Positions 977 through 64,000 of a stretch of 64,000 bases of DNA are shown here, piece after piece. This DNA is from Herminiimonas sp. (lineage in GTDB: Bacteria > Pseudomonadota > Gammaproteobacteria > Burkholderiales > Burkholderiaceae), in contig NZ_JAURVN010000002.1 in assembly GCF_030655415.1 (NCBI RefSeq), positions 468,817 through 532,816 of the forward strand. Reading direction: 5' to 3'. The notes beneath the pieces are model-generated. The model was not told where the DNA came from and searched no databases. It saw only the letters and a program-made list of their open reading frames with translations. How positions within the stretch are numbered: position 1 is the stretch's first letter; every line of letters starts with the position of its first letter. The position numbers were made by a program, and so were the translations under genes.

Positions 977-3900
977 TCACTGGCTGTGCAATGACCCCGT
1001 GCGTTCACCTGCTGCCGGCGCGGCAGGCTGCTCAAACGGCAGGGTCATGCTGCGCAGGTCGCGTTTGGTTTCGACCAGCACCAGCGGACCGGCGTCCAAT
1101 TGGGGCGCCGGCGGACGTTCGCGCGGGACATGACTCGGTTTGGCTTCGGCGGCCATGGCGGCTTGTGCTTCGGCGATTTTTCCGGCGTCCGAGTGGACCC
1201 ATTGCAAACCGGAAGCGCTGGCCACCTGGGCCAGGTCCTGCAGCGGTAAATCGAAGGACTGGACTTTCGGCAGGGCGCGGGCTGTGGGCGCAGCAGCAAG
1301 TACCACGATGGCCGGGACCGGTGTCGGCACCCCAGGTGCGGCCGGCTCGGCTTGGGCCGGCTCCCTATTTGCCATCAATTCAGTTGCTACTTGCGCACGT
1401 TCCGCAGGGGCTGTTGCCTGATTTTCCTCAAAATTTTTGGCTGGAGCGGCGCCACGGTCGGTCGCTGCGATGCCCTCAGCCGTGCCCTCGGCAGACGACT
1501 CGCCGCGCTCTGAACGCTCACGGCGGTCGCGGCCATAACGGTCACGGCTGCGGCGTTCACGCGGCTGGCGGTCCTGGCCTTCTTCCTGGCCCTCAGCGCG
1601 CGCCTGCATGTCGGTGGACGATGCCGGGAAGGCCGGGTTGCCGGCTTCGTCCAAGCCCGCCACGACGCCGGGGTGGGCGGCGTCAAAGCTGTCGGCCTGG
1701 GTGCCGGTGATCGGTGCGTTGCCGCCATCGGGGCGCTCGTCACGGCGTTCGTTGCGACGGCCATTGCCGCGCTCGCCACGTTCACGGCGGCCCCCCTGGC
1801 CTTCAGCGCGGGCTTCGTTGCGGCCGCCTTGCTGGCGTTCGCCTTCCTGTCCGGCGTCTGCAGGACGTTCCTGGCGCTGGGGGATGTCGCCGCCGGCCAT
1901 GGCCGCGGCCATGGCGGCCTGGTTGGCCAGAGCGAGGTTCTGCTGTTCTGCGTCACGCGGGGCGGCGCGTTCACCGCGTTCACCACCACGCTCGCCACGG
2001 CCACGGCGGCTGCGCTCGCCACGTTCGCCGCGGCCTTCGCTGCCGCCCTGGCCTTCAGGACGTTCTGCGCGGTCTGCGCGCTCGGGACGTGCTTCACGGT
2101 TTTCGCCGGCGGGACGTTCCTGGCGCACGCCTTCAGCGCGGCCTTCGGTGCTGCGTTCACGGCGCTCACCGCCACGGCCTTCACCACGCTCGCCACCGCG
2201 GCCTTCGCCGCCACGACCTTCGCGCTGATCCGGGCGGCCTTCGCCGCGCGCTTCGCCACGTCCTTCACCGGCACGGCCACCCCGGCCACCGCGACGGCCA
2301 TCGCGGCCATCGCGGCCACCGCGTTCACCGCCACGCTCGCCGCGTTCACCGCGCTGCTGTTCGTCGCGACGGCCTTCGCCGCGCTCGTCTTTCCTGACTT
2401 CCTTGGCGGGCGCTGCGGCGGGTGCTGCTTCCTCGCCGACAAAGAAGGCCTTGAGCTTCGCGAAAAAGCTCTTCTCAGCCGGCGCTGCGACCACCGCGCG
2501 GACCGGTTGGGCAGCCACGGGCGCGGCCACCGGGACCGGTTTCGGAACGGCCTGCGGTGCCGGCGCGTCGGGCAGCACGCCCTTGATGACCGGCTCCTGC
2601 TTGTTGTGTTTTTCCTGGCTGCGGCGCGTGACGGTGGTCGGGTCTTCCATCTCTTCGGCCATCTTGTAGCTCGCTTCGATGTTGTCCAGGCGCGGGTCGT
2701 CGTGTTTGAGACGTTCGAGTTTGTAGTTCGGCGTTTCCAGGGTCTTGTTGGGCACCAGCAGCACATTGATGCGCTGCTTCATCTCGATTTTGGCGATCTC
2801 GGAGCGTTTTTCGTTCAGCAGGAAGGACGCCACATCGACCGGAACCTGGCACAGCACCGAGGCCGTGCTGTCTTTCATCGACTCTTCCTGGATGATGCGC
2901 AGGATCTGCAGCGCCGAGCTTTCGGTGTCACGGATGTGGCCGGAGCCGCCGCAACGCGGGCAGGGAATCGACGCGCCTTCCGACAGGGCAGGGCGCAGGC
3001 GCTGGCGGCTCATTTCCATCAGGCCGAACTTGCTGATGGTGCCGAACTGCACGCGTGCGCGGTCTTGCCGCAGCGCGTCGCGCAAACGGTTTTCGACATC
3101 GCGGCGGTTGCGCGACTCTTCCATGTCGATGAAGTCGATGACGATCAGGCCGCCCAGGTCGCGCAGGCGCATCTGGCGCGCCACTTCGTCGGCGGCTTCC
3201 AGGTTGGTGCGGGTGGCGGTCTCTTCGATGTCGCCGCCCTTGATGGCGCGGGCCGAGTTCACGTCCACCGAGACCAGCGCCTCGGTGTGGTCGATCACGA
3301 TCGCGCCGCCGGAAGGCAACTGCACGGTGCGGGCATAGGCCGACTCGATCTGGTGTTCGATCTGGAAGCGCGAGAACAGCGGCGCGTCGTCGCGGTAGCG
3401 CTTGACGCGGTGCTCATGCTCGGGCATCACATGGGCCATGAACTGCCTGGCTTGCTCGTAGACGTCGTCGGTGTCGAACAGGATGTCGCCGATGTCGCTG
3501 TTGAAGTAGTCGCGGATCGCGCGGATCACGAGGCTGGACTCCTGGTAAATCAGGAAAGCGCCTTTGCCCTCTTTGCCGGCGCCGTCAATCGCGGTCCACA
3601 GCTTGATCAGGTAATTCAGGTCCCACTGCAGCTCGGCCGCGCTGCGGCCGATGCCGGCGGTGCGCGCAATGATGCTGGCGCCGGCCGGGTATTCGAGCTG
3701 GTCCATCGCCTCCTTGAGTTCGGCCCGGTCATCGCCCTCGATGCGGCGGCTCACGCCACCGCCGCGCGGGTTGTTCGGCATCAGCACGACGTAGCGGCCG
3801 GCCAGGCTGACAAAGGTCGTCAGGGCCGCGCCCTTGTTGCCGCGCTCTTCTTTTTCGACCTGCACCAGGATTTCCTGGCCTTCGCGGATCACGTCCTGGA

Positions 3901-4165
3901 TGCGCGCCTGGCTGACCGACACGCCCTGGGCGAAGTACTGCTTGGAGATTTCCTTGAACGGCAAAAAGCCGTGGCGGTCCTCACCGTAGTCGACAAAACA
4001 GGCTTCGAGCGAAGGCTCGACACGTGTCACGACGGCCTTGTAAATGTTGCCCTTGCGCTGTTCGCGCCCTTCAATCTCGATTTCGTAGTCGAGGAGTTTT
4101 TGTCCGTCGACAATGGCCAGGCGGCGTTCTTCCGACTGGGTGGCATTGACCAGCATGCGTTTCAT
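977..4165 (-). CDS. rne: Ribonuclease E
   Basis: This is a 1062-aa RNase E, the 5'-end-sensing endoribonuclease that starts mRNA decay and processes rRNA and tRNA precursors. The start is the ATG at 4165 ([10 protein letters not shown]), preceded by GGAAA; it matches E. coli RNase E closely. In order it has an S1 RNA-binding domain (about residues 35-120), the catalytic region with the acidic pair in ALVSVDVNS and LIVIDFIDM (about 303 and 346 by alignment from memory to E. coli), and the zinc-link CPRCGG near 404. After about residue 520 comes a long low-complexity tail of Arg/Gly/Glu repeats ([12 protein letters not shown] and similar), then an Ala/Pro-rich end. The tail is presumably RNA- and partner-binding. 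The gene is divergent from rluC, as in E. coli. Confidence 0.96.
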
Positions 4166-4358
4166 GGGGTTTCCTTCGTTCTTCTCTGTCTCAAACATCA
4201 CTGCCCGAAAAACGGGCAAACGACGCCGGGAGCAGACGCTGTGCGAACGTGGGGAATTGCCGGAGAGCTTTTGACGCGCTATGGCGACTGAAATAATCAG
4301 TCAGCCGAGCGGTCTGGGCGTAGGCGCGTGGATGGGGCGAGTCGGGGTCTGACAGGTG

Positions 4359-6955: not shown

Positions 6956-8011
6956 ATGAATGATTCAAACCGCCCCGCCCCGTCCGATAGCCCGGACTAC
7001 CAGCCAGATCGGCCGCCAGTCCTTGACGAAACTATGCAGACAGCTCCTGAAAATATAGCAAACCGCGGCGCCAGAACCGATCCTGCGGCCAGCCCCGGAT
7101 GGGAGCGCGCGACGCTCGAAAAGCTGGCCTATGCGTCGCTGAACGAGCAAAAAACCGCGCGCCGCTGGAGAACCTTTGTGCGCCTGTCCTGGCTGGCGTT
7201 TTTTGTGTTTCTGGTGGGGTTGGCGATGCATCGCGGCACACCCACCGTCAGCGGACCGCATACCGCGGTGATCGAGATCAAGGGCGAGATTGCCGCCGGC
7301 TCCGAGGCCAGTGCCGAGTTTGTCAATGCCGCGCTGCGCGCCGCTTTTGAAGACACAGGCGCCAAAGCCGTGGTGTTGCTGATCAATTCGCCCGGCGGCA
7401 GCCCGGTGCAGGCCGGCATGATGAACGACGAAATTGTTCGTCTGAAGACCAAACACAAAAAGCCGGTGTATGCCGTGGTCGAAGAAACCTGCGCGTCGGC
7501 CGCGTATTACATTGCCGCGTCGACCGACAGGATATTTGTCGACAAGGCCAGCATCGTGGGTAGTATCGGCGTATTGATGGACGGCTTTGGATTCACCGGC
7601 CTGATGGACAAAGTGGGTGTGGAGCGACGGCTGATGACGGCCGGCGAAAACAAGGGCTTTCTCGACCCGTTCAGTCCGCAAACCGACAAGCAGCGTGTTT
7701 ATGCCCAGGCCATGCTCGACCAGATTCACCAGCAGTTCATCACGGTGGTCAAGACCGGCCGCGGCAAGCGCCTGAAGGAAAAGCCCGAGATGTTCAGCGG
7801 CCTGTTCTGGACCGGCCAGCAGGCGATCGAGCTGGGCCTGGCGGACCAGTTGGGCACGTTGGAATATGTGGCCCGCGAGATTGTCAAGGCCGAAGACATC
7901 ATTGACTACACCCGCCGCGAAAACGTGGCTGAGCGCCTGGCCAAGAAATTTGGCGCGGCCATCGGTAACGGCGCGATGACGGCGTTCAAGGCGATACCGG
8001 CGATTCGCTAG
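6956..8011 (+). CDS. sppA: S49-family signal peptide peptidase, SppA-like
   Basis: A 351-aa short-form SppA. A cytoplasmic N-terminal region of about 70 residues is followed by one transmembrane helix (WLAFFVFLVGLAM) and a periplasmic S49 domain. The likely serine nucleophile is in ETCASAAYYIA and the general-base Lys in GENKGFLDPF, matching the Ser/Lys dyad of Bacillus SppA; GSIGVLMDGFGF is a conserved core segment. The enzyme would cleave signal peptides left in the inner membrane. It is the last gene of the rluC operon, and a dispersed repeat follows directly. Confidence 0.88.
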   Translation: MNDSNRPAPSDSPDYQPDRPPVLDETMQTAPENIANRGARTDPAASPGWERATLEKLAYASLNEQKTARRWRTFVRLSWLAFFVFLVGLAMHRGTPTVSGPHTAVIEIKGEIAAGSEASAEFVNAALRAAFEDTGAKAVVLLINSPGGSPVQAGMMNDEIVRLKTKHKKPVYAVVEETCASAAYYIAASTDRIFVDKASIVGSIGVLMDGFGFTGLMDKVGVERRLMTAGENKGFLDPFSPQTDKQRVYAQAMLDQIHQQFITVVKTGRGKRLKEKPEMFSGLFWTGQQAIELGLADQLGTLEYVAREIVKAEDIIDYTRRENVAERLAKKFGAAIGNGAMTAFKAIPAIR

Positions 8012-8023
8012 GCCCATGTTCTC

Positions 8024-8100
8024 GCCCCCACTCTTGCCACTGCGTGTGCTGCGCTGCCCCCCGAGGGGGGCTGTGCTTGCTCGGGGCGGCCCTTCGCTGC
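8024..8100 (+). repeat. Dispersed 84-bp-type C/G-rich repeat, diverged copy
   Basis: Begins GCCCCCAC, has the hallmark TGCCCCCCGAGGGGGG inverted block, and ends GGGGCGGCCC. It lies 13 bases after the sppA stop, between two convergent genes. It is the same family as copies near 26.3, 28.9, 46.2 and 63.9 kb. Confidence 0.65.
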
Positions 8101-8116
8101 GCACTCGCCGACAGTG

Positions 8117-17323: not shown

Positions 17324-17499
17324 ACACTGGTACTGCAACCCAAAAATATCGAAACATGAAAGCGCGTCTTTGCACCCATGGCGGCGTTGCAACCCTTGCG
17401 AAGGCGGCCACCAGCCTTCGCTGCGGCTTGCGCCTTGCCCTGGGTACGAATCCATCACTTTCATGATGTTTCGCTACTTCCGGGTTGCAGTACCAGAGT
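17324..17499. repeat. ~175-bp near-palindromic element between rpoE and rseA
   Basis: CTGGTACTGCAACCC (17327-17341) is a perfect 15-bp inverted repeat of GGGTTGCAGTACCAG (17482-17496). Inside it, the arms continue as imperfect inverted repeats: CGAAACA...TGAAAG (about 17350-17361) against CTTTCATGATGTTTCG (about 17459-17474), and a central GCGAAGGC (17399-17406) / GCCTTCGC (17413-17420 region) with an 8-base loop. The whole interval can fold into one long hairpin. It has no open reading frame on its own and looks like a palindromic MITE-type or REP-type repeat inserted between rpoE and rseA. Confidence 0.7.
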
Positions 17500-26314: not shown

Positions 26315-26389
26315 GCCCCCACGGTCGCTCACTGCGTGTAGCTTTCTGCCCCCCGAGGGGGCCGCTGCGCCTGCGGCCCGGCAAAGCCG
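26315..26389 (+). repeat. Dispersed C/G-rich repeat, copy after era
   Basis: Starts GCCCCCAC two bases after the era stop, with TGCCCCCCGAGGGGGC and a CTGCGGCCCGGCAAAGCC end. First of two tandem copies. Confidence 0.75.
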
Positions 26390-26399
26390 ATGAACACTA

Positions 26400-26498
26400 G
26401 CCCCCACGGTCGCCCACTTCGTGTGGCTTCCTGCCCCCCAAGGGGGCGCTGCGCCTGCGGCCCGGCAAAGCCGGTTCCGCGGCCCCGGCTTGGATTTT
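26400..26498 (+). repeat. Dispersed C/G-rich repeat, second tandem copy
   Basis: Second copy 85 bases downstream of the first; it continues into CCGGTTCCGCGGCCCCGGCTTGG, a tail shared with the copy after leuB (46249). It ends 50 bases before recO. Confidence 0.75.
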
Positions 26499-28543: not shown

Positions 28544-29680
28544 ATGAGCCTACACGCCCCCCTGATCATCGACATTGCCGGCCTGACCTTAAGCAAAACC
28601 GACTGCCGCCGCCTCAAGCATCCGCTGACCGGCGGCATCATTTTGTTTGCGCGCAACTGGGAAAACCGCAAACAGTTGGCGGCGCTGTGCCGCGACATCA
28701 AAAAAGTGCGCCAGGACCTGCTGATCTGCGTGGACCATGAAGGCGGCCGCGTCCAGCGCTTCAAAAGCGATGGCTTCACCCACCTGCCGCCGATGCGCGC
28801 GCTGGGCGAGTTATGGCTCAAGGACCCCATGGCCGCGACCAACGCCGCCACCGCTTGCGGCTATGTGCTCGGTGCCGAGCTGCGCTCCTGCGGCGTGGAC
28901 TTCAGCTTCACGCCGGTGCTGGACCTGGACTATCAGGATGGTGCCCCCACGCAAGCGCAGGCGCTTGCTGCCCCCCGGGGGGGCTCGGTCAGCTTGGGGC
29001 GGCCCGGCGCTTCCCGAAGCAGTGTCATCGGCGACCGCGCGTTTGCCAGAGACCCGCGTGCCGTCAGCCTGCTGGCCAAGAGTCTGATGCACGGCCTGCT
29101 GCAAAGCGGCATGGCCAACTGCGGAAAACACTTCCCCGGGCACGGTTTTGTGAAGGCCGATTCGCACACCGACATTCCGGTGGACAGGCGCAGTCTCAAG
29201 GCCATTTTGCTGGACGACGCCGCGCCTTACGACTGGCTCAACACCACGCTCACCAGCGTGATGCCGGCGCATGTGATCTACCCCCGGGTCGATGCCCGCC
29301 CGGCAGGTTTTTCGGAAAAGTGGCTCACCTACATCCTGCGCGGCCAGCTCGGTTTCGGCGGCGCGATTTTCAGCGACGACCTGAGCATGGCCGGCGCCCG
29401 GCTGATTGATGGCAAACAAGTCAGCTACACCGAGGCGGCCATGGCCGCGCTGAACGCTGGTTGCGACATGGTTTTGCTGTGCAACCAGTCGGTCGACGGG
29501 GGCGAGGCGGTGGACGAATTGCTCGATGGCATGGCGGAAAGCCTGCTCAAAGGGGCCTGGGAGGCGCTGGAAGCCAGTGAGCTGCGCCGGCTTGATCTGC
29601 TGCCGACGACACCGGCGCACGAATGGGATGCGCTGATGGTGCATCCCGCCTACATGCATGCGATGGGGCTGATTCCCTGA
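28544..29680 (+). CDS. nagZ: Beta-N-acetylhexosaminidase NagZ, with in-frame repeat insertion
   Basis: A 378-aa GH3 family NagZ, which removes GlcNAc from anhydro-muropeptides in wall recycling. The family signature is present: VDHEGGRVQRFK, KHFPGHG (His loop ADSHTDIPVD) and SDDLSMAG with the nucleophile Asp. Between LDLDYQ and SSVIGDRAF it carries about 25 extra residues (DGAPTQAQALAAPRGGSVSLGRPGASR) whose DNA (about 28937-29022) is a copy of the dispersed 84-bp repeat. This raises the length above the usual ~340-350 aa; the frame is kept. Whether the enzyme stays active is unknown. Confidence 0.9.
   Translation: MSLHAPLIIDIAGLTLSKTDCRRLKHPLTGGIILFARNWENRKQLAALCRDIKKVRQDLLICVDHEGGRVQRFKSDGFTHLPPMRALGELWLKDPMAATNAATACGYVLGAELRSCGVDFSFTPVLDLDYQDGAPTQAQALAAPRGGSVSLGRPGASRSSVIGDRAFARDPRAVSLLAKSLMHGLLQSGMANCGKHFPGHGFVKADSHTDIPVDRRSLKAILLDDAAPYDWLNTTLTSVMPAHVIYPRVDARPAGFSEKWLTYILRGQLGFGGAIFSDDLSMAGARLIDGKQVSYTEAAMAALNAGCDMVLLCNQSVDGGEAVDELLDGMAESLLKGAWEALEASELRRLDLLPTTPAHEWDALMVHPAYMHAMGLIP
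28937..29022 (+). repeat. Dispersed C/G-rich repeat inserted inside nagZ
   Basis: GTGCCCCCACGCAAGCGC, a TGCCCCCCGGGGGGGCT block, and CTTGGGGCGGCCCGGCG, matching copies at 63.9 kb. It encodes the extra NagZ residues. Confidence 0.75.
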
Positions 29681-46248: not shown

Positions 46249-46349
46249 GCCCCCACGTTCGCTCACTTCGTGTAGCTCTCTGCCCCCCGAGGGGGCCGCT
46301 GCGCCTGCGGCCCGGCGAAGCCGGTTCCGCGGCCCTGGCTTGCATTTTT
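46249..46349 (+). repeat. Dispersed C/G-rich repeat after leuB
   Basis: Starts GCCCCCAC three bases after the leuB stop; TGCCCCCCGAGGGGGC, then CTGCGGCCCGGCGAAGCCGG and the CCGCGGCCCTGGCTTGC tail, as in the copy before recO. Confidence 0.75.
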
Positions 46350-63863: not shown

Positions 63864-63947
63864 CAACAATTTCCCGCCGGGCCGCCCCAAGGGAAATTAG
63901 CCCCCGTGGGGGGCAGAGAGCTACACGCAGTGAGCGAACGTGGGGGC
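63864..63947 (-). repeat. Dispersed 84-bp repeat after acnA, first tandem copy
   Basis: Reverse-orientation copy starting 13 bases after the acnA stop; the AACAATTTCCCGCC unit start recurs exactly 84 bases later (63865 and 63949). Confidence 0.75.
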
Positions 63948-64000
63948 GAACAATTTCCCGCCGGGCCGCCCCAAGGGAAATTAGCCCCCGTGGGGGGCAG
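63948..64000 (-). repeat. Second tandem copy, cut by the window end
   Basis: Identical to the first copy over the visible 53 bases. Confidence 0.75.

What the first reader, a model, noticed from the sequence alone, without database searches (positions are those of the whole stretch)
28937..29022. Dispersed repeat spliced in frame into NagZ
The NagZ coding sequence carries about 25 extra residues between LDLDYQ and SSVIGDRAF, and the underlying DNA has the same GCCCCCAC, TGCCCCCC and GGGGCGGCCCGGCG landmarks as the intergenic repeats. Two tandem copies at 63.9 kb have an 84-base period, a multiple of three, so insertion need not break the frame. A mobile repeat may thus be adding protein sequence to a housekeeping enzyme.
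Basis: partly seen in the sequence, partly recalled or inferred. Interest (0 to 1): 0.75.

Follow-up and report, generated by a model that had tools for sequence, protein, structure and literature searches.

The report
Dispersed DNA repeat inside NagZ enzyme
A short GC-rich repeat that is scattered around Polaromonas genomes has landed in frame inside the gene for a cell-wall recycling enzyme, adding a 26-amino-acid loop, and the version with the loop now occurs on many different backgrounds of the gene, so it is a natural example of a mobile repeat writing new protein sequence.

Summary
Confirmed. The window's NagZ (28544-29680, 378 aa) has 26 residues that most close relatives lack: 43 of the 120 best-listed homologues carry them, 2 of 80 genome loci do and 78 have a clean empty site. 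The inserted DNA is a divergent member of a GC-rich dispersed repeat (31-111 strict copies in each of four genomes, reversed-pattern control 0), probably the published Beta-proteobacterial Repeat Element (letters not compared). NagZ is not alone: in one Polaromonas genome 14 of 97 examined copies lie open and in frame inside genes, TrpE, RecQ, MetX and CobQ among them, and a close relative lacks the TrpE, RecQ and MetX inserts. The NagZ insert follows the gene tree only in part: a protein with an otherwise identical 349-residue backbone lacks it, and identical inserts sit on backbones 78-82% alike. Best reading: repeat insertion into a tolerant, probably disordered loop, then spread between lineages by recombination (inferred). 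In-frame palindromic repeats are known from Rickettsia and from intragenic REPs.

The parts
28544..29680 (+). nagZ, beta-N-acetylhexosaminidase (GH3), 378 aa, with insert
   Evidence: NF003740, 410.6 bits against cut-off 207, two matched stretches; PF00933; fold match to B. cenocepacia NagZ 4mss/4gnv, TM 0.82-0.84 by query length
28943..29020 (+). in-frame repeat insert, 78 nt, 79.5% GC against 64.6% for the gene; codes APTQAQALAAPRGGSVSLGRPGASRS; true boundaries uncertain by a few bases
28952..28967 (+). hairpin CAAGCGC-AG-GCGCTTG; in L001 CAGGCAC-AA-GTGCCTG, two pairs changed on both sides
   Evidence: letters read directly
28969..28984 (+). TGCCCCCC/GGGGGGGC central palindrome of the repeat
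28996..29009 (+). GGGGCGGCCCGGCG core, lying in the loop of the second hairpin of class-I copies; here the stem is down to AGC/GCT
8024..8110 (+). dispersed repeat copy, end approximate (a minus-strand ORF 6965-8104 overlaps it on paper; not tested)
26315..26474 (+). two dispersed copies in tandem, 85 apart
46249..46323 (+). dispersed repeat copy
63865..64000 (-). two tandem copies, period 84, the second cut by the window end

Best explanation
A copy of a dispersed GC-rich palindromic repeat (BRE-like, 75-90 bp class) inserted in frame into the nagZ of a Polaromonas-like ancestor, in the loop between the strand that ends PVLDLD and the helix after GDRAF. The loop tolerates 26 extra, probably disordered residues, so the enzyme keeps its fold and conserved residues and the allele survives. 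The insertion-bearing stretch has since been passed between nagZ alleles of different lineages, most likely by homologous recombination over short tracts, so that presence and sequence of the insert follow the gene tree only in part. The same repeat has inserted in frame into many other protein genes of the genus; out-of-frame hits are presumably purged. Shown: insert, family landmarks, empty sites, other in-frame genes, disagreement with the gene tree. Inferred: the mobilising machinery, recombination as the route of spread, neutrality for the enzyme, purging.
For: Empty sites: 78 of 80; listed matches split at residues 130-133 and 157-159; 77 of 120. Repeat: 111, 31, 104 and 70 strict copies, reversed control 0; 126 by a looser pattern in G001, control 1. 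Other genes: (14 of 97 strict copies in G001 in frame and open, in 13 genes with nagZ), names; further genomes. Recent insertions: beside the TrpE and RecQ inserts G016 aligns with G001 at 90-94% DNA and lacks them; MetX is empty too. Spread: 22 changes of the insert label on the tree built without the insert, at least 9 forced by branches with support of 95 or more; L001 core identical over 349 residues to P0105, which lacks the insert; P0065 and P0012: cores 78.5%, inserts identical; P0059 and window: cores 81.7%, 26-residue insert identical; window and sister P0001: cores 96.3%, different insert subtypes. One origin: in all loci fetched, the nagZ-type hairpin spacing was found only in nagZ. 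Tolerance: residues 130-140 and 143-164 under pLDDT 50 in a model of mean 83; D206, H208, D278 invariant in 58 rows.
Against: The insert label is still clustered on the tree (22 changes against 38 for shuffled labels), and for 16 of 30 insert-bearing proteins the nearest other row also has the insert, so there is vertical descent as well. The tree is a quick one with many weak branches. With the DNA at hand support for transfer is mixed: against the rest of the gene the insert is more alike in 6 of 10 pairs of five alleles and less alike in the 4 pairs with L117; against the adjacent 150 bases the excess is smaller and for L001/L010 downstream reversed (0.82 against 0.88). No imported flanking tract is visible around the L001 insert; only the bases directly left of it differ more (7 of 34 and 4 of 34). 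P0001-P0171 are proteins only, many from metagenomes, so assembly error cannot be excluded for single rows. The RNA fold of the insert is no more stable than shuffles (z -0.40). No clean target duplication was seen.
Confidence: 0.8

Rival explanations
1. Single ancient insertion, inherited vertically, then lost many times by exact restoration of the short loop.
For: Inserts share frame and orientation, and the four alleles window, L001, L010 and L116 share the right-hand junction GGCGCTTCCCG; the L117 copy is decayed as an old copy would be; the label is clustered on the tree.
Against: It needs repeated losses that restore the short loop without scar, also on a backbone identical to an insert-bearing one; identical inserts on 78-82% backbones do not fit slow vertical drift. 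Loss by recombination with an empty allele would merge this with the best explanation.
Confidence: 0.2
2. Independent insertions of the repeat at a preferred site in nagZ (site-specific integration).
For: Different family members occupy the same MetX loop in G001, G079 and G051 while G016 is empty, so a loop can be hit more than once.
Against: The nagZ copies share a private hairpin subtype, found in no other fetched locus, and most share the same right half; no other orientation, frame or class was seen at the site in 44 proteins.
Confidence: 0.07
3. The loop is an ancestral variable region of NagZ that resembles the repeat only by GC-rich composition.
For: The repeat is GC-rich and the landmarks are low in complexity.
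Against: Rhodoferax, Curvibacter, Ramlibacter and Burkholderia NagZ lack it; the insert carries the ordered landmarks of the family.
Confidence: 0.02
4. The insert is selected for a function of NagZ (substrate range, stability, partner binding), not merely tolerated.
For: Length almost constant in 44 inserts including the window's (43 with 30 residues between the anchors, one 28); mean pairwise identity 0.79 against 0.87 for core windows, and only 17% of core windows are lower.
Against: Closely related proteins lack it; two paired changes between window and L001 keep the hairpin while altering amino acids (A to V, L to P; letters); the loop is modelled with low confidence.
Confidence: 0.15

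Closest known systems
BRE, Beta-proteobacterial Repeat Element (Hot et al. 2011, PMC3110155; section 14 and passages read)
   Same: 75-91 bp, GC-rich, dispersed in chromosomes, tandem in places, in Polaromonas, Rhodoferax, Delftia, Acidovorax and Bordetella; [quoted passage not shown]
   Different: The text read gives no reading-frame, empty-site or protein analysis; its alignment is a figure and its supplement was not open to me, so letters were not compared. Copy numbers here are higher (111 strict in G001 against 29 in JS666, by different criteria).
Rickettsia palindromic elements (RPE; described in PMC10969869 and PMC3733652, passages read)
   Same: Palindromic repeats inserted in frame into many unrelated protein genes.
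   Different: About 150 bp, in Rickettsia; here a shorter GC-rich repeat in Comamonadaceae, read in several frames and both orientations, with an insert allele found on different gene backbones. RPE letters were not compared.
Intragenic GTAG- and CGTC-tagged REPs (Di Nocera et al. 2013, PMC3733652, passages read)
   Same: Small palindromes found within ORFs, encoding tens of residues, thought to be neutral where they sit in linkers or loops.
   Different: No such tag as a rule: 4 of 96 copies have GTAG near the left end, 0 have CGTC there (right ends not examined).
MITEs reported in Polaromonas JS666 (Mattes et al. 2008, cited in the review PMC10969869; the paper itself is not held)
   Same: Same genus, small repeated elements.
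   Different: Cannot tell: I saw only the citation. It may or may not be the same repeat.
Inteins (general knowledge; a halobacterial intein paper was seen only as a listing)
   Same: In-frame insert whose presence does not simply follow the host gene tree.
   Different: 26 residues only, so no splicing or endonuclease domain.

Membership tests
BRE | length 75-91 bp, partial copies 40-60 bp | tested here: met
   nagZ insert 78 bp; tandem period 84
BRE | GC-rich (mean 69%, range 63.7-78.9% in Bordetella) | tested here: met
   63.9-kb unit 66.7%, mean of 96 G001 copies 76.8%, nagZ insert 79.5%, the last just above the published range
BRE | sequence match to the published alignment | not testable with these tools
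   alignment is a figure; look-ups in supplementary files were capped at 0
BRE | dispersed in Comamonadaceae, usually intergenic, some inside genes, some tandem | tested here: inconclusive
   dispersed, 14 of 97 in frame in genes, two tandem pairs among the G001 loci; the share that is truly intergenic was not resolved
Rickettsia palindromic element | in-frame insertion into unrelated protein genes | tested here: met
Rickettsia palindromic element | Rickettsia host | tested here: not met
   nearest genome loci are Polaromonas and other Comamonadaceae
Rickettsia palindromic element | sequence of an RPE family | not tested
   no RPE sequence was at hand
GTAG/CGTC REP | conserved GTAG or CGTC tag at one end | tested here: not met
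   4 of 96 and 0 of 96 at the left end; the right end was not examined
GTAG REP | associated Y1 transposase (RAYT) flanked by the repeat | tested here: inconclusive
   Y1_Tnp match in 5 of 6 genomes, one each in G001, G003, G004 and G016, three in G045, none in G002 which has 31 repeats; no repeat landmark in the seven fetched loci
NagZ (GH3) | family profile above cut-off, fold, conserved residues | tested here: met
   that D206, H208 and D278 are catalytic is recalled
Rfam RNA family | match to any curated family | tested here: not met
   0 matches in the window at gathering thresholds

The most novel reading that the evidence does not exclude
The insert behaves as a minimal selfish coding element: a GC-rich palindrome inside an open reading frame that promotes its own transfer between alleles (hairpin-stimulated recombination or template switching), keeps its stems paired by copy-correction even at the cost of amino-acid changes, and so spreads through nagZ alleles of several species without an enzyme of its own.
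Probability: 0.15. Interest if true: 0.85.

Novelty: new variant of a known kind. Interest (0 to 1): 0.6.

Why it matters
It extends in-frame repeat insertion, best known from Rickettsia, to the genus Polaromonas, and supplies natural pairs of filled and empty proteins (NagZ, TrpE, RecQ, MetX). These make two questions testable: how much random peptide an enzyme loop tolerates in nature, and how such inserts move between alleles. It also warns annotators that length variants of this kind are repeat insertions.

Tried and rejected
Own genome: none held for the window, so relatives had to stand in. First AlphaFold model on 44 close homologues was poor (mean pLDDT 66) and is not used; the second, on 58 more diverse rows, is. 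RNA stability as evidence: three nagZ inserts and two other copies fold no better than shuffles by a clear margin (z -0.40, -1.17, 0.90, 0.81, -1.16). Paired changes are better evidence (50 distinct copies, G-T counted as paired): four stem positions exceed every one of 500 shuffles (0.86 against a mean of 0.50, 0.92 against 0.59, 0.88 against 0.61, 0.82 against 0.69); six other position pairs tested show no such signal; and 10 of 25 class-I stems have 7-8 perfect pairs against about 0.6 expected. 'Coding-ready' repeat: open fraction per frame 0.66-0.92 over 160 copies against 0.76 for shuffles, so mostly composition. Y1 transposase as mobiliser: present but unlinked. Rfam: nothing. Plasmids: 3 Variovorax records with 67-68% of the query covered. 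Literature: 10 searches, several with lists capped at 10-20 titles; nothing listed there was an account of in-frame BRE insertions or of an insert in NagZ; I read passages of five papers and one section, and the JS666 genome paper that a review cites for MITEs is not held. PMC5217627 (passages) reports another motif in Polaromonas naphthalenivorans, partly in genes, with different letters. Some matches of the loose patterns (for example 53783 in the window) look like chance coding matches and were not counted.

Rows dropped: L034 and L041 were not parsed (they are). The tree used 123 of 202 parsed rows: 48 with insert (L115 left out as the genome of L001), 30 empty proteins drawn at random and the first 45 empty loci. 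One search used 30 of 43 standard-length inserts (equal core length only). Three of 171 proteins were not parsed. In one search, 4 'in frame but with a stop' and 11 'same strand, other frame' copies of G001 mix neighbouring genes with possible broken genes and were not resolved. One candidate (L089) is not among the 14. 100 of the 126 G001 places were listed and fetched; 26 were not seen. One search stopped with an error after printing its list; one search repeated the rest. MAFFT junction alignment failed to show the sites; searches replaced it.

Full report
What is there. The window encodes NagZ at 28544-29680 (+), 378 residues, above the NCBIfam cut-off as beta-N-acetylhexosaminidase with two matched stretches. 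Between LDLDY and SSVIGDRAF stand residues coded by a GC-rich stretch with the ordered landmarks GCCCCCACG, TGCCCCCC and GGGGCGGCCCGGCG. Copies at 8.0, 26.3, 26.4, 46.2 and 63.9 kb share landmarks; the 63.9-kb pair repeats at 84 bases with identical copies. The insert is 79.5% GC, the gene 64.6%.

Is it an insertion. Of the 120 listed best protein homologues 43 carry it and 77 do not; over the 171 proteins listed in the two searches 43 carry it, 125 do not and 3 were not parsed. Both lists are the best rows of 7999 scored. Of 87 genus genomes searched, 83 had a match; G001, G040 and G053 match without a break, and the other listed matches end at residues 130-133 or begin at 157-159 of the query, apart from one that begins at a contig end; some are partial contigs that cannot tell, and the list was cut. 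Solved NagZ structures of Burkholderia cenocepacia and Neisseria lack it. So the short loop is the ordinary state.

What the repeat is. The strict pattern has 111, 31, 104 and 70 copies in four genomes, with 0 in each for the reversed pattern; a looser one 126, with 1 reversed, in G001. Copies hold a first hairpin in which four stem positions keep pairing through changes beyond what shuffles give, six other tested pairs showing nothing, and, in class-I copies, a second stem that differs from copy to copy yet is often complementary around TTGGGGCGGCCCGGC. No Rfam family matches the window. The closest published thing is the Beta-proteobacterial Repeat Element of PMC3110155 (section 14 read): same size class, same hosts, tandem in places, and some copies 'entirely within coding sequences'. 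Its alignment is a figure, so I did not compare letters; identity with BRE is likely, not shown.

NagZ is one of many. In G001, the genome of L001, 97 strict copies were examined with a codon-usage score on both flanks: 14, in 13 genes with nagZ, lie inside an open frame with coding flanks in the same frame and strand. Translations and family scans point to MetX, a UdgX fusion, RecQ, TrpE, CobQ, FdhD, a GlcD-like oxidase, a molybdopterin oxidoreductase, an alpha-2-macroglobulin, an alpha/beta hydrolase and a FemAB-like protein with three copies; one protein (L114) had no family hit. MetX, UdgX, RecQ and CobQ pass NCBIfam cut-offs; TrpE falls just short (513.3 against 517.7 bits) and the GlcD-like, FdhD and hydrolase matches are below theirs. 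Twenty more places with long open frames were fetched from G001, G016, G038, G042, G045 and G051; frames with the insert include an M20 peptidase, an Ada/AlkA protein, a luciferase-like monooxygenase, a topoisomerase and a DNA ligase. The list also holds frames overlapping on the opposite strand and chance matches, so it is not a count, and empty sites were not sought for these. Inserts occur in both orientations and in more than one frame, which suggests that lack of stop codons matters more than the peptide; but the repeat is not clearly more stop-free than its composition gives.

Clean empty sites. G016 is close to G001: next to the TrpE and RecQ inserts it aligns at 90-94% DNA on both sides and lacks them; MetX is likewise empty there (94.5% on one side, 84.8% over the other), and of the three copies in the FemAB-like gene G016 has one. 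In MetX, G079 and G051 carry other members of the family in the same loop, so this loop has probably been hit more than once. RecQ of G045 has an insert at that place without the landmarks. FdhD of G001 and G016 share an insert at the same position.

History of the NagZ insert. A tree of 123 NagZ backbones with the insert removed needs 22 changes of the insert label, at least 9 forced by branches with support of 95 or more; shuffled labels need 38, so the label is clustered but not one clade. It is a quick tree and many branches are weak. For 14 of 30 insert-bearing proteins the nearest backbone lacks the insert, for 16 it has it. Direct comparisons are firmer: L001 and P0006 have a backbone identical over 349 residues to P0105, which lacks the insert. 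P0065 and P0012 are 78.5% identical in backbone with identical inserts; P0059 and the window 81.7% with the 26-residue insert identical; while P0001, the window's sister at 96.3%, carries a different insert subtype. So insert and backbone have partly separate histories. In all fetched loci the nagZ-type hairpin spacing occurs only in nagZ, which speaks for one origin. At the DNA level, with five alleles only, six of ten pairs have the insert more alike than the rest of the gene and the four pairs with L117 less alike; compared with the adjacent 150 bases the excess is smaller and once reversed. Around the L001 insert no foreign tract is visible beyond a few bases on the left. I read this as one original insertion followed by exchange among alleles over short tracts; repeated exact loss is the main rival.

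Hairpin against peptide. Between window and L001 the first hairpin differs at two pairs, both compensated (CAAGCGC/GCGCTTG and CAGGCAC/GTGCCTG). Read as codons the left-side changes are silent and the right-side changes alter amino acids (A to V, L to P). Pairing was thus kept at the price of the peptide, as expected of template-switch correction in palindromes (general knowledge) or of selection on the hairpin. This is two pairs in one comparison; L010 and L117 show decayed stems.

Effect on the enzyme. The AlphaFold model has mean pLDDT 83.2; residues 130-140 and 143-164 are under 50, between a strand (120-123) and a helix (171-187). The best structural matches are B. cenocepacia NagZ (TM 0.82-0.84 by query length for 4mss and 4gnv). 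Loops after strands in such barrels lie on the catalytic side (general knowledge), so an effect on activity is possible. D206, H208, D278, K195 and R165 are invariant in the 58-row alignment. Insert length is nearly constant, and its mean pairwise identity is 0.79 against 0.87 for backbone windows of equal length: less conserved than most of the enzyme but not free.

Mobiliser. A Y1-type transposase gene beside a glutamate-synthase-like gene (name recalled) is found once each in G001, G003, G004 and G016, three matches in G045, none in G002, and the fetched loci held no repeat landmarks. It is a candidate by analogy with REP/RAYT systems, nothing more.

Verdict. The kind is known; the extent in a free-living genus, the clean empty sites in core genes, and the partial independence of the NagZ insert from its gene tree are the parts that I did not find in print in the ten searches listed under Tried and rejected.

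Noticed in passing
window 1966-2374: Nine-member degenerate 43-nt repeat family; it lies in the arginine/glycine-rich tail of a long minus-strand protein (977-4219) that looks like RNase E (name recalled, not searched).
   Followed up: partly
window 17324-17357 and 17466-17499: Inverted repeat with 34-nt arms, 85% complementary, 108 nt apart, with no landmarks of the GC-rich repeat.
   Followed up: no
L245, L246, L247, L248 (ORF of 232 aa): Y1-type transposase, one match per genome, at a conserved place beside a glutamate-synthase-like gene in four Polaromonas-genus genomes.
   Followed up: partly
L209, L210, L211 (MetX): Three different repeat members in the same MetX loop of three genomes, empty in G016: a loop probably hit repeatedly.
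   Followed up: partly
class-I repeat copies in the fetched loci: The outer stem around TTGGGGCGGCCCGGC has a different sequence in many copies but is often complementary (10 of 25 with 7-8 perfect pairs); how new stem sequences arise is unexplained.
   Followed up: partly
L147 and L227 (FdhD): The same in-frame repeat insert position in FdhD of G001 and G016.
   Followed up: no
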